From positions 868,001-932,000 of the forward strand of contig NZ_OCNK01000001.1 of NCBI RefSeq assembly GCF_900230285.1: DNA of 64,000 bases, read 5' to 3'. The stretch is from Blastococcus haudaquaticus. GTDB taxonomy: Bacteria; Actinomycetota; Actinomycetes; Mycobacteriales; Geodermatophilaceae. Below, one piece after another: positions 49,012 to 63,020 of the stretch; position 1 is the first letter of the stretch; every line of letters begins with the position of its first letter. A program made the translations under genes and the position numbers. Below the pieces are notes generated by a model. The model saw only the letters and a program-made list of their open reading frames with translations, had not been told where the DNA came from and searched no databases.

Positions 49012-49680
49012 TCAGTCGCCCCGCTCGTCCGGCTCGACGATGTGCACCTGGACGGCGCGGAACTGCTTCGGGGTCTCGAGCAGGACCGCCTTGGTCGGCT
49101 CGCCGACGTCCAGCGCCGGCTCCCGCCGCAGCGCGACCAGCGGCGCGAGACGGGCATCGGTCAGCACCTCGTCCACCAGGCCGCGATCGCCCCCGGTGAA
49201 CAGCGCGGTCACCGACGCGGCGTGCGGCAGCAGCACCCGTACCGCGGTCTCGACGGCGTGGGTCACGACGGCGTCGGTCTGGTTCCCGCGCCTGCGGGCG
49301 AACCGCTGCTGCGACCAGCCACCGGCCGCCGTCCGGCCCTGCACCTGGCGCGCGTCGACCTTGGAGACGACGAGATCGGCGCCGTCGAAGACGCCCACCG
49401 CCCAGCGCCCGCGTCGCACCAGCAGGACCGCCGCCCGCTGCCGCTGCCGCGCGGCTGCGGTGAAGGTGCCCAGCAGCGGCGGCTGCGGGGTCCAGCCGAC
49501 GGGCGCCTGCAGGACGACGGTGGTGCTGTCGGCGCAGGTGATGCGCAGCGCCTCCGCGGAGGGCGCGACCTCGGTGAAGCTCCCGTGCCGTTCGGCGACG
49601 CCGTCCAGCCAGCGGCCGAGCCGCTCCGGCGCCACCCCGAGCCGCCGACCGCCCCCGGTAGCGGGTCGCGGGCGAGTCAC
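49012..49680 (-). CDS. acVLRF1-type peptidyl-tRNA hydrolase (release factor-like)
   Basis: A 222-residue actinobacterial VLRF1/aeRF1-type protein, expected to cleave peptidyl-tRNA on split 50S ribosomes during quality control, like eukaryotic Vms1. The diagnostic loop is GGWSQQRFARRRGNQ, replacing the GGQ of classical release factors with GxxQQRF. The eRF1 domain-2 fold continues with LLPHAASVTALFTGGDRGLV. GTG at 49680 overlaps the stop of the short upstream frame by four bases (GTGA). Confidence 0.87.
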   Translation of the reverse strand: MTRPRPATGGGRRLGVAPERLGRWLDGVAERHGSFTEVAPSAEALRITCADSTTVVLQAPVGWTPQPPLLGTFTAAARQRQRAAVLLVRRGRWAVGVFDGADLVVSKVDARQVQGRTAAGGWSQQRFARRRGNQTDAVVTHAVETAVRVLLPHAASVTALFTGGDRGLVDEVLTDARLAPLVALRREPALDVGEPTKAVLLETPKQFRAVQVHIVEPDERGD

Positions 49681-49934: not shown

Positions 49935-52124
49935 ATGCCATCGTCGGCCGTCGTCGACTCCCGCCCGATCGACTACCGGGCCGCGCACCTGTGCGCGGCC
50001 GTCCTCGCCCCCGACGTCCGGGCGACCCTCGGAGCGGCCGAGGGCGATGTGGTCCGGATCGCCACGGAGCGCGGGCGCAGCGTGCTGTGCCGGGTCTCGG
50101 GCCCGGTCGACGAGCCGGGAGCCGGCGGCGTGCGCATCGACCGGTTCACCCGGCAGGCGCTGAAGGCCTATCCGCACGAGCAGGTGACCCTGGAGCGGGT
50201 AGAACCGGCGCCCGCGCGAGAGCTCGCCCTGGTTCCCGGACTGGACATGAGCCAGCGCTTCGACCCGCAGCTGGTGCCCGCGCTCAGGCGGCTCCTCACC
50301 GAGCAGCGGGTCGCCGTCCGCCCGGGCATGCTCCTCTACGTCCGCATGCCCGACGCGATGGCCGGCGTCACGTACGAGGTTCACTTCGTCGCCCCGGTGG
50401 GCGGGGACGGCACCGAGGGCGTGGTCACCGGCGAGACGACCATCTGGATGGTCCAGGACGATCACCACCACGGGCCGGGCGACCACGAGCACGACCACGA
50501 CAAGTCCTCCGAGACGGTGCTGAACACGACCTTCGAGGACGTCGGGGGGCTCACAGCGCAGATCAGAGAGGTACGCGAGTTCGTCGAGCTGCCCCTGATC
50601 TTCCCCCAGGTGTACCGCCAGTTGGGCATCAACCCCCCGCGCGGCGTGATCTTCCACGGGGCGCCGGGCACGGGGAAGACCCTGCTCGCCCGCAGCGTGG
50701 CCAACGAGATCAACGCCGAGCTCTTCTACATCAACGGGCCCGAGGTCGTCGGCACGTTCTCCGGCGAGACCGAGGCGAACCTGCGCAAGATCTTCGCCGA
50801 GGCGAGCCTGAACCCGCCGTCGATCATCTTCGTCGACGAGCTCGACGCCATCGCGCCGGCGCGGCGGATGGCCACGAGCACGACCGAGGCGCGAACCGTC
50901 ACCCAGCTGCTGGCGCTGCTCGACGGACTCAAGCAGGCCGAGGGCGTGCTTGTCATCGGCACGACGAACCGGGTCGAGGCGATCGACCCGGCGCTGAGGC
51001 GGGCCGGCCGCTTCGACCGGGAGATCCACTTCCCGACCCCCGGAACCGAGGCGCGGGAGCAGATCCTCCGCGTGCAGACCCGGGAGATGCCGCTGGACGA
51101 CGACGCCCTCGCCGGGCTGTCCGCGATCGCCGAGCGCGCGTACGGCTTCGTGGGCGCCGACATCATGGAGCTCAGCCGGGAGGCCGGGCTCAACGCCCTG
51201 CGACGGGCCTCGACGCGGTTCGTCGAGTCCCCGTCCATGGCCACCTACCCCGACGCCGCCGAACTCGTCGTCTCCCGCGGTGACTTCGACGCTGCCCTCG
51301 GCACCGTGCAGCCGGCCGCGATGCGCGAGTCGCTGATCACCTATCCGCGGGTGACGTGGGCCGACATCGGCGGGCTGGAGCAGGTGAAGATCCGGCTGCG
51401 CGACCTCGTCGAGAAGCCGCTGCGGCACCCGGAGGTCTTCGAGCGGATCGGGCTGTCGAGCAACCTCGGCGTCCTGCTCTACGGGCCACCCGGCACGGGC
51501 AAGACCCTGCTCGCCCAGGCGATCGCACGGGAGGCCGGCGTGAATTTCCTGCCGATCAACGGTCCCGAGCTGTTCTCCCAGTGGCTGGGCGAGTCCGAGG
51601 AGAGCGTGCGTCGCGTGTTCGACGTCGCCCGGCGCGCGGCACCGTGCATCGTGTTCTTCGACCAGCTGGACGCGGTCGTCCCCAAGCGCAGCGACCTCGA
51701 GCACGAGGGCACACGCGCGCCACAGCGGGTGGTCAACCAGCTCCTGGCCGAGCTGGACGGGATGGCGCAGCGCAGCCAGGTGCTCGTCATCGGCGCCACC
51801 AACCGGATGAACATGGTCGATCCTGCCGCACTCCGCCCCGGCAGGTTCGGTGTGCACTTGCACGTCGGCCCGCCGGACGAGGCCGGTCGAGCCGAGATCC
51901 TCCGGATCCACCTCGCGGGCACGGCGCTCGACGGCGACCTGACCCTCGACCGGATGGTGGAGCACCTGGTCCCACGGACCGCAGGGATGACCGGCGCCGA
52001 CCTCGCCTTCCTCGTGCAGAACGCGAAGCTGGCGGCCCTGGACCTGGACCGGGCCGAGCCGAATCCGCGGTTGGATCTGGCGACCTTCGACGCGGTGCTC
52101 CTGGAGACGGGGCCGACGGGCTGA
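49935..52124 (+). CDS. CDC48/VAT-like double AAA ATPase with degenerate D2
   Basis: A 729-residue protein with the CDC48/p97 plan. An N domain (about 10-170) with double-psi barrel features is followed by a His/Asp-rich linker (about 175-192; DDHHHGPGDHEHDHDK). D1 (about 200-420) has Walker A GAPGTGKT, Walker B IIFVDELDAI and Arg-finger RRAGRFDREI, all intact. D2 (about 470-710) has Walker A YGPPGTGKT, but its Walker B is IVFFDQLDAV (Glu replaced by Gln), and the Arg-finger region reads LRPGRFGVHLHV without the second Arg. So D2 should bind but hardly hydrolyse ATP. ATG at 49935 with GGAG upstream. Confidence 0.93.
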   Translation: MPSSAVVDSRPIDYRAAHLCAAVLAPDVRATLGAAEGDVVRIATERGRSVLCRVSGPVDEPGAGGVRIDRFTRQALKAYPHEQVTLERVEPAPARELALVPGLDMSQRFDPQLVPALRRLLTEQRVAVRPGMLLYVRMPDAMAGVTYEVHFVAPVGGDGTEGVVTGETTIWMVQDDHHHGPGDHEHDHDKSSETVLNTTFEDVGGLTAQIREVREFVELPLIFPQVYRQLGINPPRGVIFHGAPGTGKTLLARSVANEINAELFYINGPEVVGTFSGETEANLRKIFAEASLNPPSIIFVDELDAIAPARRMATSTTEARTVTQLLALLDGLKQAEGVLVIGTTNRVEAIDPALRRAGRFDREIHFPTPGTEAREQILRVQTREMPLDDDALAGLSAIAERAYGFVGADIMELSREAGLNALRRASTRFVESPSMATYPDAAELVVSRGDFDAALGTVQPAAMRESLITYPRVTWADIGGLEQVKIRLRDLVEKPLRHPEVFERIGLSSNLGVLLYGPPGTGKTLLAQAIAREAGVNFLPINGPELFSQWLGESEESVRRVFDVARRAAPCIVFFDQLDAVVPKRSDLEHEGTRAPQRVVNQLLAELDGMAQRSQVLVIGATNRMNMVDPAALRPGRFGVHLHVGPPDEAGRAEILRIHLAGTALDGDLTLDRMVEHLVPRTAGMTGADLAFLVQNAKLAALDLDRAEPNPRLDLATFDAVLLETGPTG

Positions 52125-52192: not shown

Positions 52193-53290
52193 TCAGGCGG
52201 GCGGCGGCGCGGTGAAGCCGTCGCCGGCAGCAGCCCGCAGCGACGCGTCGTCGAACTCGGGCGCGTTCTCGAAGAACACGATGCGCGAGTAGCCGAGCTC
52301 GGCGTAGATGCTGTTCGACGCCCCGATGAGCTTCGCCGACTCGGTGCCGGTGCTGAACCGCTGCACGATCGTGTTGTGGGGCACCCAGATCATGTCCCCC
52401 TTCTTCCAGTCCCAGCGCGTTGGCTTCTTCGCCACACGCGCGTAGAACTGGTCGGCGATCTCGGCCTCGACGTCCCAGTGCAGGTCGTAACCCTCGCCGT
52501 CGAGGACGTGCACCGCCTCGTCGGCCATCTGCCACCGCTTGCCCGAACGGCTGTCGGCCGGGATCTCGTGCAGGTAGGCGTCGGTACCCTTGATCCGGAG
52601 GGGCGCACCCTTGCCGGCGATCTGGCGGACGCGGCCGAACTCGGTCCACAGCCACTCGGTGTCGGCAGGAGTGAGCACCTTGGGGACGAGCTCGTCACCC
52701 TCGGGACGCGCGGTCAGCCACTCGGTGCGCGGCTCCCACTGGTCCTCGTCGGCCGGCTTGGTGCCGATCTTCCCCTGGAAGGTGAGGCCGAGGAACAGCG
52801 ACAGCGGCTTGGGCTTCATGACGAGGCAGACCGCGCGCTTCTCGGGGTCTGGGTTGTTGTGCCAGTGCACGCAGTCGTTGTGCACGGCGACGGCGTCCCC
52901 GGCGCTCCACGGGTAGTCCTTGCCGTCGTGGGTCTCGTAGCCGTTGCCCTCGAGCACGTAGAACAACGCCTCGTTCTGGTGTCCGTGCCCGTCGTTGCGC
53001 CCGTTGGGCTGGATCACGACGAAGTGCAGGTGCAGGCTCTGCGTGCGGAACTGCTCATCACCAGGGTCGATGATGTTCCAGTTCTCCTTGAGGCTCAGCC
53101 CCTCCCCCAGGGTCGGAGTCCACACCCGGGGAACGGTCGTGACGCGCTCGCGCCGCTCCTCGGTCAGGGTGTACCGGTTGCTGGCCAGCTCCCGCACGTA
53201 GATGCGGGCCTTCTTGTAGTGGTCGTCGTAGACGTGCACGTTCTGTGCCGTCTGCTCGCGGGTCTGGGACTTCGTTCGCTCCTGCTCCAT
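52193..53290 (-). CDS. Bicupin protein, gentisate-dioxygenase-like; candidate ring-cleavage enzyme
   Basis: A 365-residue protein with two cupin domains. The first (about 75-170) has a metal-binding set: GHGHQNEALFYVLEG (GxHxH-x3-E) and, downstream, HNDCVHWHNN with the third His. The second (about 225-330) is weaker (ADEAVHVLDGEGYDLHWD; IWVPHNTIVQRFS). Length and layout match gentisate 1,2-dioxygenase and related bicupin ring-cleaving dioxygenases using Fe(II). Aromatic-type function is inferred from neighbours; a plain isomerase or sensor cupin is possible. ATG at 53290; an operator-like dyad lies 25-35 bases upstream. Confidence 0.82.
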   Translation of the reverse strand: MEQERTKSQTREQTAQNVHVYDDHYKKARIYVRELASNRYTLTEERRERVTTVPRVWTPTLGEGLSLKENWNIIDPGDEQFRTQSLHLHFVVIQPNGRNDGHGHQNEALFYVLEGNGYETHDGKDYPWSAGDAVAVHNDCVHWHNNPDPEKRAVCLVMKPKPLSLFLGLTFQGKIGTKPADEDQWEPRTEWLTARPEGDELVPKVLTPADTEWLWTEFGRVRQIAGKGAPLRIKGTDAYLHEIPADSRSGKRWQMADEAVHVLDGEGYDLHWDVEAEIADQFYARVAKKPTRWDWKKGDMIWVPHNTIVQRFSTGTESAKLIGASNSIYAELGYSRIVFFENAPEFDDASLRAAAGDGFTAPPPA

Positions 53291-53314
53291 GCAGCGCCTC
53301 CTCGGTGAGTCCAG

Positions 53315-53325
53315 TGGTATGACCA
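53315..53325. promoter_or_regulatory. GntR-like operator, site 1
   Basis: TGGTATGACCA, form TGGT-N3-ACCA, 25 bases before the bicupin start. Confidence 0.65.
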
Positions 53326-53624
53326 TTTGACACCGAACCCTAGGTCTCCCACCAGAGGCTCGCTCAGGACTCCGGCCACGCGGCAGCCGGCACCCTGTGG
53401 GTTCATCGCCGACACGACTCTTCCAGGGGTCGTGCGCCTCGACGGGCGTTCCCGCAGAAACGCCCGGCGACGAGGCCGGGGTGGTGCGCCGCTCTGCCGA
53501 GTCCGCGGGGTCCAGTACCCACGACACCCCGGCCGAGGCGGTTCGACACCACCGTCCAGCGGAGGGCGTCGCGTGTCCACGAACACGAACATGCGGCAAG
53601 CCCGCGCACCCTGCGTCGGGTGGG

Positions 53625-53656
53625 GTGTCAGACCATTAGTCCACGACTGCTAGCGT
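53625..53656 (+). promoter_or_regulatory. GntR-like half-operator (site 2) and -10 element of the MFS gene
   Basis: GTGTCAGACCA (53625-53635) keeps the ACCA half and only part of the TGGT half. TAGCGT (53651-53656) is a likely -10, and TCAGAC (53628-53633), inside the site, is at -35 distance (17 bases). Confidence 0.45.
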
Positions 53657-53682
53657 GCCTGACGACGAGCGGGGGTGGGGAC

Positions 53683-54810
53683 TTGGCCAGTCGGCGGGAC
53701 ACCCTCGCATCGGCGACAGGTGCCGGCATCTACTCGGTGTCGCTGAGCATCGCCAGCCTCGCGCTGCCCCTGCTGGCCATCGAAGCCGGGTACTCGGCCT
53801 TCGAGATCGGCGCGCTGACGGCAGCCTCGGCCCTGTCGCAGATGCTCGTGCGGCTCTGCCTCGGCTGGGCCATGCGCCGCTGGCCGGACTGGATCCTGAT
53901 CGCCGCTGCCGGTGTACTGCTCGCCGTCAGCTGCGCCGTGGTGGCCGTCTCCGCGGGACTGGTCCCCTTCGTCGCGGCACAGCTGCTGCAGGGTGCCTCC
54001 CGCGCCCTCTTCTGGACCGGCAGCCAGACGCACGTCGTCCGGGGGGCGGGGCGCGCGGCCGGAGCCCTGGCACGGGTCAACCTTGCCGCCTCCGTCGGAT
54101 TGCTGACCGGGCCCCTCCTCGCAGGCGTGCTGTCCGAGGACAGCCCGACCGTCGCCCTCGTCGTCGCCGCGGCCGTGGCGCTGCTCGGCCTGGTACCCAA
54201 CGCGCTGCTGGACCGGCTGCCACCGTTCGCGCCCCCCGCCGACCGCCCCCCGGGCCGGGTGTGGCGCCGACCAGGGGTCGACGTCGCGTGCTGGGCGGGG
54301 ATGACCGCCGGCGCCTGGCGGGCACTGCTGACCTCCTACGTGCCCGTCGCCCTGGACCAGGCGCGCCAGTCGGCCACCACGATCGGAACGCTCGTCGCCG
54401 CTGCGAACGGGGCATCCCTGGTGGGCACCGCCGTGGCCGGCCGGTTGCGGGGACGCTGGACCATGCCGCTGCTGGGGGCGGGCATCGTCCTGACCGGCAT
54501 CGCGACCGGGCTGACCGGCGTGGTGGCCTGGAGCACCGCCCTCTCCGCGCTCGTGCTCGTGGTCAGCGGCATCGCAGCGGGGGCGGTCCAGGTGCTGGGG
54601 CCCGCCATCGCCGCGGAGGCGGTGCACCCCGAGGAGCGCGGCGAGGCCATCGCGGCGAGCGGCACCTTCCGCGCGGCCGCCCTCCTCGCGGCGCCGCTGG
54701 CCGTCGCCGGCCTGGTCGTCGCCATCCCCCTGACGCCTGCCATGGCGGTCGTGGGCGCCGGCATGCTGATCCCCGCGCTGGCCCTGCGCCGCCTCGGCCG
54801 GGCCGGGTAG
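53683..54810 (+). CDS. MFS transporter of the catabolic island
   Basis: A 375-residue transporter with about 12 membrane helices (SLSIASLALPLLAIEAGYSA; GVLLAVSCAVVAVSAGLVPF; and others to the C-terminus). The loop motif is short (LCLGWAMRRWPDW). The best start is TTG at 53683, preceded by a GGGGGTGGGG purine stretch; no ATG or GTG is better placed. It is the only transporter in the island and so a candidate for uptake of the aromatic substrate. It converges on the class II aldolase gene, eight bases apart. Confidence 0.82.
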   Translation: MASRRDTLASATGAGIYSVSLSIASLALPLLAIEAGYSAFEIGALTAASALSQMLVRLCLGWAMRRWPDWILIAAAGVLLAVSCAVVAVSAGLVPFVAAQLLQGASRALFWTGSQTHVVRGAGRAAGALARVNLAASVGLLTGPLLAGVLSEDSPTVALVVAAAVALLGLVPNALLDRLPPFAPPADRPPGRVWRRPGVDVACWAGMTAGAWRALLTSYVPVALDQARQSATTIGTLVAAANGASLVGTAVAGRLRGRWTMPLLGAGIVLTGIATGLTGVVAWSTALSALVLVVSGIAAGAVQVLGPAIAAEAVHPEERGEAIAASGTFRAAALLAAPLAVAGLVVAIPLTPAMAVVGAGMLIPALALRRLGRAG

Positions 54811-54818
54811 CCCTGCGC

Positions 54819-55511
54819 TTAGCTCCGCTCGAGCCGCCGCACCAGGTAATCCCAGGCACCCTGCAGCATCGCGTCGGAGTAGCAGTGGTCCCGCTTGGAC
54901 AGCGACTCCTCGGGCGAGGACCAGGTGGCCCATCCGCCGGCTGCCATGGCGGTGAGCTGCATCCGGCAGGCACGGTCGAGCAGGTAGGCGGTGACCGTCG
55001 CCGTCTGCACGTCCGGCGCGGCGACGACGATCCCGTGGTTGACCAGCAGGCAGGCGTTGCGTTCACCCAGCGCGGCGGCGACGGCACGGCCCAGCTCGGC
55101 GGTCAGCACGAGATCGCCGGTGCCCGTGAAGCGGGCGATGTCCGGTGGGGCGAACAGGTTCGCCTCGTGCGAGATGGGGCGCAGCGGAACCCCGATCGCC
55201 CCCAGCGCCACCGCGGCCGGGGAGTGGGTGTGGATGACGCTGCCGACGTCGGAGCGTGTCCGCATGACCTCGGTGTGGATGGGGTACTCGGCGTGCCGGC
55301 GACCGGTGCCGGCGAGCACCTCGCCGTCCCAGGACACCAGGATGACGTCGTCGGGCCCTACTTCCTCGAAGCCGAGCCCCGAGGCCTTCATCCAGATGCC
55401 GCGCCCCTCGGGGTCCCGGACCGAGACGTGCCCCCAGATGAGGTCGCCCTGGTCCGCAGCCCCCAGGATCCGGCACCCCAGCGACACCAGTCGGCGCAGG
55501 TCTTCGGTCAT
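54819..55511 (-). CDS. Class II aldolase/adducin-family protein, possible dihydroxyphthalate decarboxylase
   Basis: A 230-residue protein of the FucA/AraD fold. Zn ligands are in SVIHTHSPAAVALG and LLVNHGIVVAAP. Family members are aldolases, epimerases or decarboxylases; actinobacterial PhtC, a 3,4-dihydroxyphthalate decarboxylase, belongs here, which fits the other genes in the island. ATG at 55511 with GAGGAGG. Divergent from the flavoprotein gene across one operator-like dyad. Confidence 0.87.
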   Translation of the reverse strand: MTEDLRRLVSLGCRILGAADQGDLIWGHVSVRDPEGRGIWMKASGLGFEEVGPDDVILVSWDGEVLAGTGRRHAEYPIHTEVMRTRSDVGSVIHTHSPAAVALGAIGVPLRPISHEANLFAPPDIARFTGTGDLVLTAELGRAVAAALGERNACLLVNHGIVVAAPDVQTATVTAYLLDRACRMQLTAMAAGGWATWSSPEESLSKRDHCYSDAMLQGAWDYLVRRLERS

Positions 55512-55542
55512 GTCTCGCCCTCCTCGACGTGTTATGGCAGAA

Positions 55543-55553
55543 TGGTAATACCA
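55543..55553. promoter_or_regulatory. GntR-like operator, site 3
   Basis: TGGTAATACCA, extended to ATGGTAATACCAT (55542-55554), in the 67-base divergent region between the class II aldolase and flavoprotein genes. It would control both. Confidence 0.7.
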
Positions 55554-55578
55554 TTTGTTGGAGATTCGGGAGGCCCTC

Positions 55579-56838
55579 ATGCCGCTCTCCGAGCACGAGG
55601 CCGGCACGCTGGTCGTCGGCGCCAGCCAGGCGGGCGCGCAGCTGGTGACGTCCCTGCGCCAGCTCGGCGACACCGCTCCGATCACGCTCGTCGGCGCGGA
55701 GGCGCACGCCCCCTACCAGCGGCCCCCGCTGTCCAAGGAGTTCCTGGCCGGTATGGCGACGCCGGAGACGCTGGCCTTTCGCAGCCCGACGTTCTACCCG
55801 GACCACGACATCGAGCTGGTGTGCGGCGAGCGGGTCGAGGAGATCGCGCTCCCCCGCGACGACCGGCCGGGAGTGGCCCGGACGGCCAGCGGCCGGGAGC
55901 TGCCCTTCGCCCGGTTGGCGCTCACCGTCGGCGCCCGTCCACGCCGGCTCGACGTGCCCGGCGCCGACCTCGGCGGGATCCTGTACCTGCGCGACCTCGA
56001 CGACGCCGTCGCCCTGCGGGACCAGCTGGCCGGGGCCTCCCGCGTCGTCGTGGTCGGTGGCGGGTTCGTCGGTCTCGAGGCCGCGGCCGCCGCGCGGGCC
56101 ATGGACAAGCAGGTCACCGTCGTCGAGGCGGCCGACCGGCTGGTCGGCCGGGCCGTGGCGCCGGTCGTCTCGGAGTTCTACCGCGGCGCCCACGAGCGCC
56201 GGGGCAGCACGGTCCTCCTCGCCACCGGGGTCGTCGGCTTCCAGGGCACCGCCGGCCGGGTCGAGGCCGTGCTCCTCGCCGACGGCCGCAGCCTGCCCGC
56301 CGATCTGGTCATGGTGGGCATCGGCGTGATCCCGCGCGTGGAGCTGGCCGAGCAGCTCGGGCTGGAGTGCGACGGCGGCATCGTCGTAGACGCGCACGCC
56401 CGCACCAGCGCGCCGTCGGTGGTCGCCGCCGGGGACTGCACGGTCCAGCCGCACCCCATGACCGGAGACGGCAGGGTCCGGCTGGAGTCGGTGCCCAGCG
56501 CCGTCGCGCAGGCCACGCTGGCCGCCACCACACTGCTCGGCCGAGAGGTCAGCACCCGCAGCGTGCCGTGGTTCTGGTCCAACCAGGGCGATCTGAAGCT
56601 GCAGATCGCCGGGCTGTCCACCGGCTTCGACGAGGCCGTGGTCCGCGGCAACCCCGACAGCGAGAGCTTCTCCGTCCTCTACTACCGCACCGGCCAGCTG
56701 CTGGCCGTCGACGCGGTCAACAGCCCCGCCGACTACCTGGCCGTGCGCAAGGCCCTCACCCACGGGCTGCCGCTGCCGGCCGACCGGGTCGCCGACGCCG
56801 GCACCCCGCTCAAGAGCCTGCTCACCGCGGCCGCCTGA
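55579..56838 (+). CDS. FAD-dependent ferredoxin-reductase-like protein
   Basis: A 419-residue NAD(P)H-dependent flavoprotein of the type that feeds Rieske oxygenases and cytochromes P450. FAD motif: TLVVGASQAGAQLVTSLRQL; the PPLSKEFLAG stretch is typical; NAD motif: VVVVGGGFVGLEAAAAARAM; and SVVAAGDCTVQPHP near the C-terminus. ATG at 55579 has GGGAGG; a TTG at 55555 is less likely. No Rieske oxygenase or ferredoxin gene is in the window, so its partner must lie elsewhere or the role differs. Confidence 0.9.
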   Translation: MPLSEHEAGTLVVGASQAGAQLVTSLRQLGDTAPITLVGAEAHAPYQRPPLSKEFLAGMATPETLAFRSPTFYPDHDIELVCGERVEEIALPRDDRPGVARTASGRELPFARLALTVGARPRRLDVPGADLGGILYLRDLDDAVALRDQLAGASRVVVVGGGFVGLEAAAAARAMDKQVTVVEAADRLVGRAVAPVVSEFYRGAHERRGSTVLLATGVVGFQGTAGRVEAVLLADGRSLPADLVMVGIGVIPRVELAEQLGLECDGGIVVDAHARTSAPSVVAAGDCTVQPHPMTGDGRVRLESVPSAVAQATLAATTLLGREVSTRSVPWFWSNQGDLKLQIAGLSTGFDEAVVRGNPDSESFSVLYYRTGQLLAVDAVNSPADYLAVRKALTHGLPLPADRVADAGTPLKSLLTAAA

Positions 56839-56842
56839 CCCC

Positions 56843-56885
56843 CGTCCTCCGCGGCGGCCGCGCCCGGTCCCCGCCACGGAGGACG
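56843..56885. terminator. Hairpin between convergent genes
   Basis: CGTCCTCCG (56843-56851) pairs perfectly with CGGAGGACG (56877-56885), separating the flavoprotein gene from the convergent operon. Confidence 0.65.
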
Positions 56886-56890
56886 CGGGC

Positions 56891-57712
56891 TCACCGCAGG
56901 TCGGCCAGGTCCTCGCGGGTCAGTTCGGTCACCAGCGGCTGCAGGGCCCGCACCAGCGGCACGTCCACGCCGGCCTCCTCCGCCATGGCCAGCGCGACCT
57001 CCAGGTCCTTCGCCGGCCAGCGCAGCCGGTGCAGACCCCAGTCGGCGAGCACCTGGTTGGCCCCGGTACCGGCCCCCAGGATGCTGCGCAGCCGGCCCGG
57101 CGCGACACCGAGCGAACGGGCCAGGCGCAACACCTCGACGTCGGCCCGCAGGGCCGTCCACATGAGCACGTTGTTGGCGCTCTTGGCCACCTGCCCGGTG
57201 CCGGGCCCACCGATGTGGCAGACGTCGGTCGCGAACGCCGCGAAGGCCTGCGCGCACCGGTCCAGCACCGCGGCTTCGCCGCCGCACATCAGCGTCAGGC
57301 CGGCCTGCTCGGCCGCCCGCTCGCCACCGACCAGCGCGACGTCGACCACCGCGACGCCCCGCTCCGCCGCGGCCTCCGCCATCCGGACACAGGTGTCGGG
57401 GCGCACGGACGCGCAGATCGCCACCACGGTCCCCGGACGGGCGGCGTCGCGGATACCGCCGGCGCCGGCGATCGCCTCCTCGACCTGGGCGTCGTCGACG
57501 ACGACCAGCAGGACGAGATCGGCCTCCAGGGCGACGTCGGCGACCGAGTCGCGGAACTGCGCCCCCGCCTCCCCGATCCGCTCCTCGGCACCCGGAGCCG
57601 GGTCGGTCGCGAGCACCGGCCATCCCCGCTCGACGAGCCATCGACCCATCTCGGCACCCATCCGGCCCCAGCCCACGACGCCGACGGTGCGGATCTCCTC
57701 GACGACGGTCAT
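56891..57712 (-). CDS. NAD(P)-dependent beta-hydroxyacid dehydrogenase-like protein
   Basis: A 273-residue enzyme of the 3-hydroxyisobutyrate/6-phosphogluconate dehydrogenase superfamily. The nucleotide motif is VGVVGWGRMGAEMGRWLVER, the substrate loop is VVAICASVRPDTC, and the catalytic Lys is in GQVAKSANNVL. Its ATG shares one base with the stop of the upstream gene (TGATG), so it is the last gene of a coupled five-gene operon. Likely oxidises or reduces a hydroxyacid intermediate of the pathway. Confidence 0.9.
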   Translation of the reverse strand: MTVVEEIRTVGVVGWGRMGAEMGRWLVERGWPVLATDPAPGAEERIGEAGAQFRDSVADVALEADLVLLVVVDDAQVEEAIAGAGGIRDAARPGTVVAICASVRPDTCVRMAEAAAERGVAVVDVALVGGERAAEQAGLTLMCGGEAAVLDRCAQAFAAFATDVCHIGGPGTGQVAKSANNVLMWTALRADVEVLRLARSLGVAPGRLRSILGAGTGANQVLADWGLHRLRWPAKDLEVALAMAEEAGVDVPLVRALQPLVTELTREDLADLR

Positions 57713-58701
57713 CAGATGACGAACGCCTCAGCGGTCTCCGGCGCGAACAGCTCTGCCGGCTCGTACTGCCGCCGGGAAAGCCCCTGCTGGTGGTGGTAGC
57801 GCAGGAAGGTGGAAAGGACGTGCTCGTTGCCCGGCAGGCCGTAGGACCAGTAGTCCTCGCCCATCAGCGCCCGCGCCTCCTCGAGACCGGGGATGAGCCA
57901 GGGCAGCATGAACCGCAGCGCCGAGGCGTCGTACAGCTCCGCGGCGGCCTTCTGCTTGGCGAGGTAGAAGGCCTTGGTGAGCGTCTGGGCCACCCACGGG
58001 TGACTCTCGTAGACGTCCCGCCGGACGACCACGACGTGCATGATCGGGAAGATGCCGGTCTCGGCGAAGTACTGCTTCTCCGCCGCCACCGGATCGGCGA
58101 ACAAGCGGCGCACGTTGCCGCCGGGCACGAAGGACGACGGCACCCGCGGACCCTGGAACGCGTCGATCTCGCCGTCGGCCAGCATCCGCGCCAACGTCTG
58201 GGCGGGACCGATCGGCGAGATGCGGATGCGCTCGCCGAGGTCCACCGCGGCCTTCTCGATCCGGCCCGGGGTTTCCTGCCCGCCCGTCCGGTACTCGACG
58301 GAGTCCACGGGCACCCCGTACTGGTCGGCGAGCAGACCGCGGATCCAGACGTTCGCCGTCAGCTGCCACTCCGGTGTGCCCACGACCTTGCCCCGCAGGT
58401 CCCCGGGCTTCTCGATGCCCGACTCCGCGTTCACGAAGATGCCGGTGTGCCGGAACTGCCGGGACGTGTAGACCGGCAGCGCGACGAACGGGGGATCGTG
58501 GAGGTCCAGGGACTTCACGTAGGACGACATCGACATCTCGGCGACCTCGAACTCCCGGAACCGCATCATCCGGAAGAACGTCTCCTCCACCGGCAGCCGC
58601 AGGTAGGTCAGGTCGATGCCGTCGGGGCGGACGGTGCCGTCCTCCAGCGCTCGGGTGCGGTCGTAGTCGCCACAGGCGAAGGTCAGGCGCAGTCGGGACA
58701 C
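57712..58701 (-). CDS. 4,5-Dihydroxyphthalate decarboxylase-like protein
   Basis: A 329-residue protein of the Pht5-like group within the substrate-binding-protein (NMT1) fold. RLTFACGDYDRTRALEDGTV is the classic start, and GRIEKAAVDLGERIRISPIG with ADGEIDAFQGPRVPSSF supports it. Relatives remove a carboxyl group from 4,5-dihydroxyphthalate to give protocatechuate, without a known cofactor. No signal peptide, so it is a cytoplasmic enzyme rather than a transporter part. GTG at 58701, five bases after the LigJ-like gene. Paralogue at 61615. Confidence 0.85.
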   Translation of the reverse strand: MSRLRLTFACGDYDRTRALEDGTVRPDGIDLTYLRLPVEETFFRMMRFREFEVAEMSMSSYVKSLDLHDPPFVALPVYTSRQFRHTGIFVNAESGIEKPGDLRGKVVGTPEWQLTANVWIRGLLADQYGVPVDSVEYRTGGQETPGRIEKAAVDLGERIRISPIGPAQTLARMLADGEIDAFQGPRVPSSFVPGGNVRRLFADPVAAEKQYFAETGIFPIMHVVVVRRDVYESHPWVAQTLTKAFYLAKQKAAAELYDASALRFMLPWLIPGLEEARALMGEDYWSYGLPGNEHVLSTFLRYHHQQGLSRRQYEPAELFAPETAEAFVI

Positions 58702-58705
58702 GGGG

Positions 58706-59716
58706 TCACTTCCCTCTCAGGCGGGCATCGAGCCGGGGGTAGACCCGGCGGGCATTTCCCTCGAGAACCGCCTGCAGCTGGGCCTCGTCCAGCCCGGCGG
58801 CGTCCAGGTACTGCAAGGTGTCGTCCCAGGCGATGCCGGTGTCCGGATCGCCGCCGCGCACCGCGCCGAGCATCTCGGAGGCGAAGAGGATGTTCTCCGC
58901 CGGGATCACCCGGGTCAGCAGGTCGATCCCCGGCTGGTGGTAGACGCAGGTGTCGAAGAAGACGTTGCGCAACAGCTCCGACGGGTCCTTCCAGCCCATG
59001 CGCATGGACAACCCCCGGTAGCGGCCCCAGTGGTAGGGAACCGCCCCGCCACCGTGCGGGATCACCAGCCGCAGCGCGGGGAACCGCTCGAACAGATCGC
59101 CCTCGAGCAGCTGCATGAAGGCGGAGGTGTCGGCGTTGAGGTAGTGGGCGCCGAGCGCGTGGAAGTTCGGGTTGCACGAGCTGGAGACGTGCACCATCGC
59201 GGGGACGTCGAGCTCCACCAGCGCCTCGTACACCGGGTACCAGTACGGATCGGTCAGCGGCGGGGAGTTCCAGAACCCCCCGGAGGGGTCCGGGTTGAGG
59301 TTGGCGCCGACGAACCCGCGGTCCTCGACGCAGCGGCGCAGCTCGGCGACGACGTCGTCCAGCGTTCCGCCGGGGGTCTGGGGGAGCTGGCAGACCGAGG
59401 CGAAGTGCTGCGGGTAGAGATCGGCCACCCGGGCGACCAGGTCGTTGCTGGCGCGCGCCCACGCGACGGCGGTGTCCCGGTCGGCGACGTGGTGCTCCAT
59501 CCCCGACGCGCGCGGAGAGAAGATCATCAGGTCCCCACGGCGCTCGCGCAGGACCCTCAGCTGGTTGTTCTCGACGCTCTCCCGCACCTCGTCATCGCTG
59601 ACGCTCCCGAGCTGCGGCGCACCGCCGCCGCTCTCCAGCGCGGCCTTCTGCGCCTTGCGGAAGAGGGTCAGCTGGGCCGGCTCGGTGGTGTAGTGGCCGT
59701 GGCAGTCGATGATCAA
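58706..59716 (-). CDS. LigJ-like 4-oxalomesaconate hydratase (amidohydrolase fold)
   Basis: A 336-residue metal-dependent protein. The N-terminal [16 protein letters not shown] is characteristic of LigJ, which adds water to 4-oxalomesaconate to give 4-carboxy-4-hydroxy-2-oxoadipate. Further metal or active-site stretches are [20 protein letters not shown] and [20 protein letters not shown] broader ACMSD/resorcylate decarboxylase-type role is the main alternative. ATG at 59716 overlaps the LigK-like stop by four bases. Confidence 0.85.
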
Positions 59717-60417
59717 CGCGGCGGCTCCTGTTCGACGTAGCGGAGCCCCTTGGCGGCCAGGGGTTCGCGCATGTCGTTCATGTCCAGTCCGAGCTGCCCG
59801 CCCCGGTACCGCTCCCGGATGCCCGCCTCGCGCTCCTCGCGGGCTCGGGCGGCCTGCAGCACCTCGACCGCGCGGCCCTGCGGCACGACGACCACGCCGT
59901 CGTCGTCGGCCACCACCACGTCACCCGGCTCGATCCACTGACCTGCGCAGACGACTCCCACGTTGACGCTGCCGAGCGTCTCCTTGATGCACCCGAACGC
60001 CGACACGTGGCGGGACCACGCCGGGAATCCCATGGCGGTCAGCTCGGCGACGTCGCGGACACCCGCGTCCACCACCACGCCGCGGACCCCCCTGGTTGCC
60101 AGGGCGGTGGCCAGCAGATCACCGATGTAGGCGGCCTGTGACGGCGTCGTGGGCGCGATGACCAGCACGTCGCCCTCGGCGCACTGCTCGACCGCCACGT
60201 GCACCATCCAGTTGTCCCCCGGCGGCAGGCTCACCGTGACGGCGGTGCCGGCGACCCGGGCGCCGGAGTACACCGGCCTCAGCGCGGGATCCAGCAGATG
60301 GGTGCGCCCCTGCGCCTCGTGGACGGTCGCGACACCGCACCCGGCGAGCCCGTCGACGACAGCCCGGTCTGCCCGGGCGATGCCCGTGACGACGACGTTG
60401 TCCCGGGCGGCGCTCAT
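59713..60417 (-). CDS. LigK-like 4-carboxy-4-hydroxy-2-oxoadipate aldolase (RraA fold)
   Basis: A 234-residue class II (metal-dependent) aldolase of the RraA-like fold that splits 4-carboxy-4-hydroxy-2-oxoadipate into pyruvate and oxaloacetate. Typical stretches: [37 protein letters not shown], the Arg-Asp pair in [33 protein letters not shown] and the C-terminal [12 protein letters not shown]. These go beyond generic RraA and match CHA aldolases. ATG at 60417 overlaps the dehydrogenase stop by four bases. Confidence 0.88.
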
Positions 60418-61529
60418 GCATCGCCCCAGGGCTTGAGGGAGATGTGCAGGGCGTCCTCACCGGTCTCGCCGGCGAGCGCCCGGATGGCATGGTCGACGTC
60501 CTCGAGGCCGAACGTGTGCGTGGCCAGCCGCTCCAGAGGGAACCGACCCGACGCCAGCTGGTCCAGCGCCAGCTCCACGGAGCGGTAGCTGTGGCCGCGC
60601 GCGCTGCCCAGGGTGATGCATTTCTCGGTCATCTTCTTCAGCGGGAAGTCCGGGAACGCGGCCTCCTCGCCCTGGGTGACCATGATGCCCTCGCGCCGCT
60701 TGAGCGCGTCGATGCCGAGCAGCACCGGCGCGGTGCCGGCCCCGGAGGTGCAGTCCAGGACGACGTCGACGCCCGTGCCCCCGGTGAGCTCCAGGACCCG
60801 CTCCAGCGGATCTTCGCGCTGGACGTCGATGACCGCGTCCGCGCCGAGGTCCAGGGCCAGCTGCAGCCGGGTTGCGTCGCGGGTGGTGCCGGTGACGACG
60901 ATCAGCGAAGCACCCGCCTGCTTGGAGGCAACCACCTGGGAGAGCCCCTGCTGGCCGGGTCCCTGGATCAGCACGCTGGTCGCGTAGCCGACCTTGCCCG
61001 CGTTGAGCGCCCACTCGATGCCGTTGGACAGCGGGGTGACCAGGCCGGCGAGCTCGGCGCTGACGCCGTCGGGCACCTTGTGGGTGACGGCGTTCCAGGG
61101 CAGGTACAGGTACTGCGCGAACCCACCCCACAGGCGGCCGGGGTTGTTCGACGAGGTGTAGCCGTAGCGACGGGCGTCGGGGTTGGTGCGCCAATCGGTG
61201 AGCTCGCAGTGCCGGTACTCACCGGCCCGGCACCACTCGCAGTGCATGCAGCCGACGTAGTGCTCGACGAAGATCCGGTTGCCCTCGACGAGGCCGTGCA
61301 TCCTGGACCACGTGGCGCCCGCCCGGGCGACGATCCCGACGTTCTCGTGCCCCATGATCACCGGCTCGTCGATCGTGGGCTTCCGGTACAGCTTCACGTC
61401 GGTGCCGCAGATCCCGGCCACCTCGATCTTGAGCAACGCGGCGTCGTCCGCGATCTCCGGCATCGGGAACTCCTGGAGCTCCGTCGTCCCCGGGGCGGTC
61501 CGGACCGCCGCAAGCACCTGTTCCGCCAT
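60414..61529 (-). CDS. Zinc-binding alcohol dehydrogenase (MDR family)
   Basis: A 371-residue medium-chain dehydrogenase, first gene of the five-gene operon. Catalytic Zn ligands are in [12 protein letters not shown] and MGHENVGIV, four structural-Zn Cys in [17 protein letters not shown], and the NAD motif is [14 protein letters not shown]. It could oxidise an aromatic alcohol or an aldehyde/hemiacetal intermediate of the pathway (in place of LigC), but this is inferred. ATG at 61529 with GGGAGGAG upstream. Confidence 0.9.
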
Positions 61530-61580
61530 TGCTGCTCCTCCCGCGCCGTGTGTCGTGGAGCACCCTAGACGACGGTCTAT

Positions 61581-61606
61581 TGGTCTGACCATCAGCGTGC
61601 TAGCGT
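61581..61606 (+). promoter_or_regulatory. GntR-like operator (site 4) and -10 element
   Basis: TGGTCTGACCA (61581-61591) is a perfect dyad in the divergent region. TAGCGT (61601-61606) is a likely -10 for the plus-strand gene, nine bases from the ATG, suggesting a leaderless or nearly leaderless transcript with the operator over the -35. Confidence 0.65.
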
Positions 61607-61614
61607 CCGCCGCC

Positions 61615-62556
61615 ATGGCCGACCTGAACCTGCGCACCGTCACGCGCGCCCAGGGGAACAACCGGGCGCTGCTGGACGGCACCGTCACCCCCGAGGGCGC
61701 GACCTTCGCCTTCGAGGAGGTCCCCGTCCTGGTCCAGGGCTTCCGCCGGATGGTGCGGAACCTGGAGTTCGACGTCTGCGAGATGGCGCTGACGACCTAC
61801 CTGGTCGCGAAGGCGCACGGGGTGCGCTTCACCGCGGTGCCGGCGTTCCTCGTCCGCGGCTTCCACCACGGAGCCATCACCGTCGACACGCGGCACGGCA
61901 TCACCAAGCCGAAGCAGCTCGAGGGCAGGAAGGTCGGCGTCAACCGGGGATACACCGTGACCACCGGGGTGTGGGCGCGGTCGGTACTGGCCTCCGAGCA
62001 CGGCGTCGACCTCGACTCGATCACCTGGGTGCTCTCCGGTGACGAGCACGTCGAGGCCTACCGACCGCCGGCGAACGTCGCCCCGATCGACCCGGGCCGG
62101 ACGCTCGACGAGATGCTCGCCAGCCGCGACCTGGCCGCGGTCGTCGGGGTGGAGATCGACTCCCCCGACGCCCGCCCCCTGCTCCCCGAGGGCGCGGCAC
62201 ATGCGGCACTGCGACGGGGCCTGTGGCCGATCAACCACCTGGTGGTGATCCGCGACGAGCTGCTCGACCAGCACCCCGACCTCGGGCGTCGGGTGTTCGA
62301 CGCCTTCGCCGAGTCGAAGCGGCGTTACGTGGACCAGTTGCGCAGCGGCTCGCTGCCGCAGGAGACGGCGACCGACCGCATGCACCGCAGCGTCATGGAC
62401 ATCACCGGGTGGGAAGACCCTCTGCCCTACGGGATCGAGCCCAACCGCGAGGTGCTGGAGGGCCTGCTGCGAGCGGCGGTGGACCAGAAGATCCTCGACC
62501 GCGCGCCGCGGCTGGAGGACGTCTTCGCAGCGGGCACCCGAGACGTCACGGCCTGA
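61615..62556 (+). CDS. Second 4,5-dihydroxyphthalate decarboxylase-like protein
   Basis: A 313-residue paralogue of the protein at 57712, same NMT1-like fold. Visible are NNRALLDGTVTPEGATFAFE, FRRMVRNLEFDVCEMALTTY, KQLEGRKVGVNRGYTVTTGV and VVGVEIDSPDARPLLPEG. It lacks the GRIEKAAVD-type insert of the first copy and is shorter. A separate substrate or isomer preference is plausible. ATG at 61615. Confidence 0.82.
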   Translation: MADLNLRTVTRAQGNNRALLDGTVTPEGATFAFEEVPVLVQGFRRMVRNLEFDVCEMALTTYLVAKAHGVRFTAVPAFLVRGFHHGAITVDTRHGITKPKQLEGRKVGVNRGYTVTTGVWARSVLASEHGVDLDSITWVLSGDEHVEAYRPPANVAPIDPGRTLDEMLASRDLAAVVGVEIDSPDARPLLPEGAAHAALRRGLWPINHLVVIRDELLDQHPDLGRRVFDAFAESKRRYVDQLRSGSLPQETATDRMHRSVMDITGWEDPLPYGIEPNREVLEGLLRAAVDQKILDRAPRLEDVFAAGTRDVTA

Positions 62557-62564
62557 GGGGCGAC

Positions 62565-63020
62565 GTGCGGATCGCCATCACCGCCGACCACAACGGGGTC
62601 GCGCTCAAGGCCCGGCTCGTCGAGGCCCTGCTGGCTGCCGGCCACGAGGTCGACGACCGCGGGCCGGCGTCCGGCGACGAGATCGTCGACTACCCGCCGC
62701 TGTGCGAGGACGTCTGCCGACGCGTGACGGACGGCCGGGCCGACCGGGCGGTCGTCGTCGGCGGCAGCGGCCAGGGCGAGGTGATCGCCTGCAACAAGCT
62801 GCGGGGCATCCGCGCCGGGCTGTGCCCCGACGTGTGGCACGCGGAGATCTCGCGGGGGAACAACGACTCGAACGTGCTGGTCCTCGGGGCGAAGGTGATC
62901 GCCCCTGACACGGCGGAGCTGGTCCTGGCCAGGTGGCTGGCGACGCCGTTTAAGGGCGACGTGCACGCCCGCCGCGTGGCGATGATCGAAGCGCTGGAGC
63001 GGGGCGAGTCACTGCTGTAG
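62565..63020 (+). CDS. RpiB/LacAB-family isomerase
   Basis: A 151-residue RpiB-fold protein, GTG at 62565, eight bases after the decarboxylase-like gene. Start: RIAITADHNGVALKARLVEA. The active-site loop is GGSGQGEVIACNKLRG, the mycobacterial type that uses Glu as base rather than the E. coli Cys. HAEISRGNNDSNVLVLGAKV matches the phosphate-loop side. Normally it interconverts ribose/ribulose 5-phosphate or other aldose/ketose phosphates. Its place in an aromatic island suggests a new role (tautomerase?) or a salvage role. Confidence 0.85.
   Translation: MRIAITADHNGVALKARLVEALLAAGHEVDDRGPASGDEIVDYPPLCEDVCRRVTDGRADRAVVVGGSGQGEVIACNKLRGIRAGLCPDVWHAEISRGNNDSNVLVLGAKVIAPDTAELVLARWLATPFKGDVHARRVAMIEALERGESLL

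What the first reader, a model, noticed from the sequence alone, without database searches (positions are those of the whole stretch)
52193..63020. Catabolic island with LigJ/LigK-like enzymes but no known ring-cleavage dioxygenase
Seen: bicupin, MFS, class II aldolase, ferredoxin reductase-like, Zn alcohol dehydrogenase, LigK-like, LigJ-like, two dihydroxyphthalate-decarboxylase-like proteins, hydroxyacid dehydrogenase and RpiB-like, all within 11 kb. Known: LigJ and LigK are the final two steps of protocatechuate 4,5-cleavage. LigAB, LigC and LigI homologues are absent, and the island is bounded on both sides by unrelated genes. Inference: the bicupin opens the ring of a phthalate- or hydroxybenzoate-derived diol and the dehydrogenases replace LigC, giving a variant pathway. 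I know of no described cluster with this exact set.
Basis: partly seen in the sequence, partly recalled or inferred. Interest (0 to 1): 0.78.

Follow-up and report, generated by a model that had tools for sequence, protein, structure and literature searches.

The report
Island for breaking down aromatic acids
This stretch is the left part of a larger, recurring bacterial gene island that probably breaks down a benzene ring carrying several acid groups; its last two enzymes are familiar, but which enzyme opens the ring is not settled.

Summary
The named genes are present and LigJ/LigK are genuine, but the reading needs three corrections. (1) The island does not end at 63020: it runs about 24 kb past the window and includes a Rieske ring hydroxylase, ferredoxin, hydrolase, a second bicupin with an EutA-like ATPase, and transporters. 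(2) LigAB, 4-oxalomesaconate tautomerase, a second LigJ and LigK exist elsewhere in this genome, in a vanillate/syringate-type cluster. Yet 7 of 11 genomes with the island LigJ (own included) show no LigA, so the island probably does not depend on LigAB. (3) The window's bicupin sits with a Cdc48-like ATPase as a cassette at the island's left edge; relatives of it are common in such islands but not universal, and a second, EutA-linked bicupin is an equally good ring-opening candidate. LigJ, LigK, Zn-dehydrogenase and Pht5-like genes recur with the Rieske set in other actinobacteria and rhizobia. The Rieske enzyme is isophthalate-dioxygenase-like with an extra pocket arginine (17 of 17 close relatives), suggesting a ring with a further acidic group, such as trimellitate. 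Substrate and ring-opening enzyme are inferred, not shown. New variant of a known kind; moderate interest.

The parts
49935..52124 (+). Cdc48-like double AAA ATPase at the left edge; tail-to-tail with the bicupin
   Evidence: Pfam AAA x2, CDC48_N below cut-off; beside the near-identical bicupin in G000, G010, G022, G090; 59% to Chloroflexota genes flanking bicupins
52193..53290 (-). Bicupin of the finding; intact metal motif (GHGHQNEA ... H-x-[DE]-x-VHxH) in the first cupin, degenerate second cupin
   Evidence: only weak similarity to gentisate-type dioxygenases
53737..54810 (+). MFS transporter (MFSa); a GTG at 53620 is another possible start
   Evidence: full-length relatives in 9 of 11 island genomes
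54819..55511 (-). Class II aldolase/adducin family; PhtC-like but below the PhtC cut-off
   Evidence: 103.6 vs 200 bits; 83% or more in 7 of 11 island genomes
55558..56838 (+). Ferredoxin reductase; inferred electron donor for the Rieske oxygenase beyond the window
   Evidence: Pyr_redox_2 + Reductase_C; relative sits beside the ferredoxin in G185; in 9 of 11
56891..57712 (-). 6-phosphogluconate-dehydrogenase-type NAD(P) dehydrogenase; accessory
   Evidence: close orthologue (91-94%) in G004, G005, G010, G022 only (9 genomes compared)
57712..58701 (-). Pht5-type 4,5-dihydroxyphthalate decarboxylase homologue (Pht5a)
   Evidence: 8e-86 to 9jp7; in 11 of 11 island genomes
58706..59716 (-). LigJ, 4-oxalomesaconate hydratase family, own clade
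59713..60417 (-). LigK, 4-carboxy-4-hydroxy-2-oxoadipate aldolase
   Evidence: both NCBIfam cut-offs passed; 57% to the C5 copy
60414..61529 (-). Zinc alcohol dehydrogenase; inferred cis-dihydrodiol dehydrogenase of the Rieske step
   Evidence: 61-64% orthologues in three rhizobial-type loci; 11 of 11 in the family
61615..62556 (+). Second, divergent Pht5-like protein (Pht5b)
   Evidence: 1.7e-29 to 9jp7; 33% to the first; in 10 of 11 family genomes
62565..63020 (+). RpiB/LacAB-type isomerase
   Evidence: in 9 of 11; not matched in L092-L098
63509..64000 (-). 3' part of an MFS transporter that runs past the window; the island goes on beyond it

Best explanation
The window holds the left third of a roughly 35-kb catabolic island whose core is a horizontally shared pathway for a benzene ring with two or more acid groups. 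Proposed order: a TctABC/MFS importer takes up the acid (inferred). An isophthalate-dioxygenase-type Rieske enzyme with its ferredoxin and reductase makes a cis-dihydrodiol at a carboxyl-bearing carbon (family shown, substrate inferred). The zinc dehydrogenase oxidises it with loss of CO2 (inferred). A Pht5-type decarboxylase removes another carboxyl (family shown, substrate inferred); on trimellitate this order would give 4,5-dihydroxyphthalate and then protocatechuate. The ring is opened by a non-LigAB enzyme, most likely a cupin: the EutA-linked bicupin-2 beyond the window (0.3) or a member of the window's bicupin family (0.3), less likely LigAB acting in trans (0.15) or something unrecognised (0.25). 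The alpha/beta hydrolase may do a lactonase step (inferred). LigJ hydrates and LigK cleaves the product to pyruvate and oxaloacetate (families shown). The window's own bicupin with its Cdc48-like neighbour is a late-added cassette that may stand in for the island-native relative.
For: LigJ, LigK, Zn-dehydrogenase and Pht5a in 11 of 11 family genomes, Pht5b in 10, Rieske, x171, PanB-like, hydrolase, RpiB-like and ferredoxin in 9. Same set without Pht5a, RpiB or bicupin in the G185 stretch, and with both bicupin types in G120. Rieske, x171, hydrolase, Zn-dehydrogenase, LigJ and Pht5b together in Phyllobacterium, Rhizobium and Sinorhizobium plasmids. Rieske enzyme is 48% identical to isophthalate dioxygenase 9INA vs 42% to 7fhr; R234 and H257 (carboxylate contacts, PMC12445078, passages read) are kept in 23 of 23 rows; position 249 is Arg in 17 of 17 rows at >=65% identity and Phe in L096, L097, L098, G348 and 9INA. 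LigA in 4 of 11 island genomes. Bicupin-2 at >=77% in 11 of 15 genomes, directly beside EutA in 13 of 13 fetched loci that show both; all 4 plasmid records with this EutA (E <= 1e-40) also carry the Rieske gene.
Against: No enzyme was tested. Bicupin-2 is missing from G088, G090 and G185, with only a weak partial match in draft G081, and G088 keeps a partial EutA without it; the bicupin family is missing from G088 and from the G185 and G186 stretches; so neither cupin is indispensable. G186 has Rieske, x171, PanB, hydrolase, RpiB and Pht5b but no LigJ, LigK or Zn-dehydrogenase orthologue in its 40-kb stretch. G090 has LigJ, LigK and Zn-dehydrogenase but no Rieske, x171, PanB or hydrolase orthologue on that 91.9-kb contig. 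F249 Peribacillus also has a Pht5 gene nearby, and R249 Caballeronia shows no LigJ/LigK nearby, so the arginine does not track one pathway perfectly. The route from protocatechuate to LigJ's substrate needs a LigC/LigI-like pair that is not identified. Roles of the PanB-like, RpiB-like, PGAM-like and x171 proteins are unexplained. The rhizobial LigK-like gene is only 33-34% to P0008.
Confidence: 0.52

Rival explanations
1. One reading: the window's bicupin (family) is the ring-cleavage dioxygenase and the dehydrogenases replace LigC.
For: GHGHQNEA and the later metal histidines invariant in 18 of 18 rows; family co-occurs with island LigJ in 10 of 11 genomes vs 1 of 101; members also in G120 (43%) and on a G294 contig (40%); all 7 LigA-less island genomes have a member, though with 11 genomes this last association is not significant (p = 0.36).
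Against: Position moves from 5 to 51 kb from LigJ where both lie on one contig; the window's cassette is absent in G004, G005, G088; no member in G088 genome-wide or in the G185 and G186 stretches; no plasmid match; below every dioxygenase equivalog cut-off; Chloroflexota relatives sit with AAA, solute-binding or what I read as pyrimidine-type genes, not recognisably aromatic ones (three contigs, two from one MAG).
Confidence: 0.28
2. LigAB at C5:508.7-509.8k opens the ring for both clusters; the island supplies only the upper steps plus spare LigJ/LigK.
For: At C5: LigM and DesA-like O-demethylases, LigAB, 4-oxalomesaconate tautomerase, LigJ2, LigK2. G088, which lacks both bicupins, has LigA.
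Against: 7 of 11 island genomes, including single-contig G022, have no LigA; two of those seven are incomplete drafts (88% and 73%).
Confidence: 0.15
3. The substrate is not a benzene carboxylate but another acidic ring (for example a pyridine or pyrone carboxylate), with LigJ/LigK acting on an analogue.
For: Extra arginine and several core proteins of unknown role (x171, PanB-like, RpiB-like); island LigJ forms its own clade.
Against: Isophthalate-dioxygenase contacts kept; two Pht5-type proteins.
Confidence: 0.15

Closest known systems
Isophthalate catabolism iphA2CBA1 of Comamonas (PMC12445078 and PMC13040137, passages read; Fukuhara 2010 not held)
   Same: Single-subunit Rieske oxygenase of the same type with the same two carboxylate contacts, a dehydrogenase and a solute-binding-protein uptake system
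   Different: Extra Arg at position 249; ferredoxin in the cluster; Pht5, LigJ, LigK, hydrolase and x171 in the same cluster
Protocatechuate 4,5-cleavage cluster of Pseudarthrobacter Sphe3 / Arthrobacter FB24
   Same: LigJ (61%) and LigK (54%) (Sphe3), class II aldolase and FAD reductase nearby
   Different: Those clusters hold a protocatechuate 4,5-dioxygenase alpha/beta gene, a Gfo/Idh/MocA gene (LigC-type, my reading) and a further amidohydrolase (LigI-type, my reading), and a two-subunit dioxygenase; the island holds none of these
Gallate/3-O-methylgallate route (own genome C5; parts in Novosphingobium KA1)
   Same: LigJ and LigK end steps
   Different: Island has no LigAB and no 4-oxalomesaconate tautomerase
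Phthalate 4,5-dioxygenase (Pht3/4/5) pathway (gene names recalled)
   Same: Pht5-type decarboxylase
   Different: Rieske enzyme nearer isophthalate dioxygenase; no Gfo/Idh/MocA-type dehydrogenase among the island genes scanned with Pfam
Gentisate/5-aminosalicylate-type bicupin dioxygenases
   Same: Bicupin with one intact metal site
   Different: 27 bits vs a 650-bit cut-off for the nearest equivalog

Membership tests
Protocatechuate 4,5-cleavage pathway | LigAB ring-cleavage dioxygenase in the locus | tested here: not met
   None in the island; LigA/LigB pairs on contig C5 only, LigB-type also on C6; 4 of 11 island genomes have LigA
Protocatechuate 4,5-cleavage pathway | LigC and LigI | tested here: inconclusive
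   LigI query: no hit; LigC query: partial 26-36% hits only; the LigI query had no positive control
Protocatechuate 4,5-cleavage pathway | LigJ hydratase | tested here: met
   7e-139 to solved hydratases; [15 protein letters not shown] and SEM motifs kept in 7 of 7 rows
Protocatechuate 4,5-cleavage pathway | LigK aldolase | tested here: met
   Two curated cut-offs passed
Gallate-type route | 4-oxalomesaconate tautomerase with LigAB, LigJ, LigK | tested here: not met
   No such gene among the island genes read; present at C5 (tautomerase 500 vs 440 bits)
Isophthalate dioxygenase (IPDO) | Rieske enzyme of this type with R234 and H257 | tested here: met
Isophthalate dioxygenase (IPDO) | Nonpolar F249, I294, F333 that shape the isophthalate pocket | tested here: not met
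   R249, V294, I333 in the own enzyme
4,5-dihydroxyphthalate decarboxylase (Pht5) | Full-length homology to a solved enzyme | tested here: met
   8e-86 over residues 2-328; activity not testable here
Gentisate-type bicupin ring-cleavage dioxygenase | Curated family score | tested here: not met
   27.1 vs 650 bits
Gentisate-type bicupin ring-cleavage dioxygenase | Ring-cleavage activity on a diol | not testable with these tools
   Needs purified enzyme
Cpa (Cdc48-like protein of actinobacteria; PMC6017811 seen in a search listing only) | Proteasome interaction, orthology to Cpa | not tested
   Only double AAA and a sub-threshold CDC48_N match were seen

The most novel reading that the evidence does not exclude
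The island opens a benzene-polycarboxylate ring with a new class of bicupin dioxygenase that must be kept active by its own dedicated ATPase. Three bicupin types in these islands occur beside an ATPase: the window's copy with a Cdc48-like AAA protein, bicupin-2 with an EutA-like reactivase, and bicupin c36 with a TRIP13-like AAA protein.
Probability: 0.1. Interest if true: 0.82.

Novelty: new variant of a known kind. Interest (0 to 1): 0.5.

Why it matters
If right, this is a recurrent, cross-phylum pathway for aromatic polycarboxylic acids (as come from weathered char, humics or plasticisers; recalled, from no call) that reaches pyruvate and oxaloacetate through LigJ/LigK without the textbook LigAB-LigC-LigI middle. 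It would name a concrete gene set for a substrate class for which I saw no aerobic gene cluster in the listings (terms trimellitate, trimellitic acid). It would also point to cupins served by ATPases as a testable idea.

Tried and rejected
Structure of the bicupin: the AlphaFold model from an 8-row alignment had mean pLDDT 38.8, so no fold search was made.

Idea that the bicupin is unrelated to the island because Modestobacter muralis L007 shows no LigJ beside it: dropped in that form when searches showed the two on one contig about 41 kb apart and strong co-occurrence.

Bicupin-ATPase pairing as a general rule: in the five genomes tested (G000, G004, G005, G022, G028) each such ATPase touches a cupin (permutation p 0.001-0.04 per genome, post hoc and not independent); bicupin-2/EutA are adjacent in 13 of 13 fetched loci with both, and c36/c37 in the 5 family genomes that have them and in G294. 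But bicupins in G004, G005, G022 (second copy), G028 (second copy), G036, G089 and G008 have no ATPase directly beside them; G088 keeps a partial EutA without bicupin-2; the AAA gene before the L008 bicupin is an FtsH protease; 5 of 5 plasmid homologues of c37 looked at (of 281 records) lie in CBASS loci without an annotated cupin; and the one plasmid Cdc48-like gene looked at (of 50 records) has none. The window pair is convergent, not an operon.

Genomic-island signs: no tRNA in the window or in L015, L022, L023. The bicupin has lower G+C (67.2%) than window 1-49000 (74.1%) and the island parts measured (70.5-72.4%).

Papers: searches. PMC12445078 and PMC13040137 were read as passages; PMC6017811 and the others only as search listings. 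No listing title or abstract start described this gene set or a cupin-ATPase pair.
Full report
What is there. The 11 genes of the finding are real. LigK passes both curated LigK cut-offs, LigJ matches solved 4-oxalomesaconate hydratases at 7e-139, one Pht5-like protein matches a solved 4,5-dihydroxyphthalate decarboxylase at 8e-86 and the other matches it at 2e-29. The bicupin has only weak similarity to gentisate-type enzymes (27 bits against a 650-bit cut-off; 5e-5 to a solved gentisate dioxygenase).

Where it lies. The window is C2:868001-932000 of a 4.5-Mb genome in 11 contigs. The bicupin is 98% and 96% identical to genes of Blastococcus saxobsidens and Modestobacter muralis; matching contig lengths and positions show that these are G010 and G090, which are in other genera of the same family as the window, so the source is most likely a member of Geodermatophilaceae (inference).

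The island is larger than described. To the right of the window follow an MFS gene, an ABC transporter, a second 6PGDH-type gene, another MFS gene, TctC, an alpha/beta hydrolase, a PanB-like protein, a 171-residue protein without a Pfam or NCBIfam match (x171), a Rieske oxygenase, a ferredoxin, a PGAM-like protein, a GntR regulator, EutA, a second bicupin, an FAD monooxygenase, an isochorismatase-type hydrolase and TctCBA, up to C2:955.6k; PEP carboxykinase comes after one more MFS gene (transporter and carboxykinase names without a family search are my reading of the sequences).

A conventional cluster elsewhere. At C5:493.9-509.9k the genome holds LigJ2 (62% to the island copy), a catechol-2,3-dioxygenase-like protein (below cut-off), 4-oxalomesaconate tautomerase (500 vs 440 bits), LigK2 (57% to the island copy), a LigM O-demethylase (896 vs 580 bits), a DesA-like protein (below cut-off), LigB and LigA (112.8 vs 108.6 bits). 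This is a vanillate/syringate-type route. LigI was not found (no positive control) and LigC only partially. So the first stated refuter is half met: LigAB exists, but with its own LigJ and LigK.

Does the island need LigAB? Of 112 family genomes 41 have a LigJ at E <= 1e-60: 11 of the island type (72-100% identity), 28 of a 60-65% type only, G095 (39%) and a G065 fragment. In the 11, LigA is present in G000, G010, G088 and G090 and absent in 7, of which G036 and G081 are incomplete drafts. G022, a single contig, has no LigA and one LigB-family hit (8e-23) of a type that the own genome also has on C6 and that I did not identify. So the island most likely works without LigAB.

Which genes are core? 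By similarity search in the fetched stretches of the 11 genomes, LigJ, LigK, Zn-dehydrogenase and Pht5a are in 11, Pht5b and GntR in 10, Rieske, x171, PanB, hydrolase, RpiB, ferredoxin and ferredoxin reductase in 9 (not the same 9), FAD monooxygenase and bicupin-2 in 8, class II aldolase in 7; the bicupin family is in 10, one of them a fragment. G090 shows no Rieske, x171, PanB or hydrolase on its contig, and only short contigs of G081 were fetched. A scan of 396 genomes of the phylum gave 6 with a Rieske orthologue, own included. G185 (single contig) has Rieske, x171, PanB, hydrolase, GntR, a weak PGAM match, ferredoxin, reductase, Pht5b, Zn-dehydrogenase, LigK and LigJ, but no Pht5a, RpiB or bicupin of either type in the stretch; G120 has the set with Pht5a, RpiB, aldolase, bicupin-2/EutA and a bicupin-family gene; G186 has Rieske, x171, PanB, hydrolase, RpiB, Pht5b and bicupin-2/EutA but no LigJ, LigK or Zn-dehydrogenase orthologue in 40 kb; G294 has the Rieske gene and a bicupin-family gene on one contig and a LigJ end piece with bicupin-2/EutA on another; G348 has a 55% Rieske and 38-44% Zn-dehydrogenases only. 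In Phyllobacterium, Rhizobium and Sinorhizobium plasmids there are Rieske (69-72%), x171 (34-38%), hydrolase (56-58%), Zn-dehydrogenase (61-64%), LigJ (59-60%), a LigK-like protein (33-34%) and Pht5b (31-39%). The LigJ tree puts all 11 island copies with G185 and G120 in one clade (100/100); LigJ2 groups with Novosphingobium KA1 (89/94), and the rhizobial core LigJs lie outside the actinobacterial clade.

The bicupin. It belongs to a family with invariant metal residues and co-occurs with the island LigJ (10 of 11 vs 1 of 101, Fisher 2e-12, related species); members are also in G120 and G294. But the near-identical copy of the window occurs only in G000, G010, G022 and G090 among the 112, there always tail-to-tail with the Cdc48-like gene; G004, G005 and G088 lack this cassette at the same place; and G022 has both the cassette and a second, 44% bicupin elsewhere in the island. 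G088 has no member at all, and none is in the fetched stretches of G185 or G186. So the window's copy is an accessory; the family as a whole remains a fair ring-opening candidate.

Bicupin-2. Besides the window's genome it is 88-98% identical in seven family genomes and 77-84% in G120, G186 and G294; it is missing from G088, G090 and G185, with only a weak partial match in the draft G081. It lies directly beside EutA in 13 of 13 fetched loci that show both: eight family genomes, G120, G186, G294, Phyllobacterium and Sinorhizobium terangae. Four of four plasmid records with this EutA also carry the Rieske gene. G088 keeps a partial EutA without it.

Substrate. The Rieske enzyme is 48% identical to isophthalate dioxygenase 9INA and 42% to 7fhr. 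R234 and H257, which hold the two carboxylates of isophthalate (PMC12445078, passages), are kept in 23 of 23 rows; position 249 is Arg in 17 of 17 rows at 65% identity or more and Phe in L096, L097, L098, G348 and 9INA; 7fhr has Gln. I read this as room for one more acidic group. An isophthalate-type attack on trimellitate would give 4,5-dihydroxyphthalate, the substrate of Pht5; hydroxy-isophthalate would give gallate. Both are inference. Exceptions: Peribacillus has Phe and a Pht5 gene; Caballeronia has Arg and Pht5 but no LigJ/LigK match nearby.

Verdict. A new variant of a known kind of catabolic cluster: familiar first and last steps, an unidentified ring-opening step.

Noticed in passing
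49012-49635 and 49935-52124: A VLRF1-type release-factor gene (acVLRF1) lies beside a Cdc48-like ATPase; eukaryotic Vms1 is a Cdc48 partner (recalled). In G004, G005 and G088 the VLRF1 gene has no Cdc48-like neighbour, so the adjacency may be chance.
   Followed up: partly
L035:16723-18728 (G028); also G004, G005, G022, G036, and L120:2172-4089 (G294): A third bicupin (c36) is followed by a small AAA ATPase (c37) whose five plasmid homologues looked at lie in CBASS loci (TRIP13-type, my reading); here it is paired with a cupin instead.
   Followed up: partly
L009:3-13820: A Chloroflexota contig carries three bicupins of the window's family between two Cdc48-like genes (59% to the window's), with peptide-type solute-binding genes (my reading).
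   Followed up: no
L012 (own genome C5:937k): A second LigA/LigB-like pair sits with what look like hydantoinase-type and meta-cleavage lower-pathway genes (names of the neighbours are my reading of the sequences).
   Followed up: no
L099, L100: In Diaphorobacter and Acidovorax plasmids a Pht5b-like gene is next to a LigJ-like gene in a cluster with a gene annotated protocatechuate 3,4-dioxygenase and a citrate-lyase-type aldolase: another LigJ context without an annotated LigAB in the stretch.
   Followed up: no
G185, about 10-15 kb right of LigJ (L104): The compact core is followed by what looks like a PAH-type cluster with a bicupin, DHDPS-type aldolases and a BphC-type protein.
   Followed up: no
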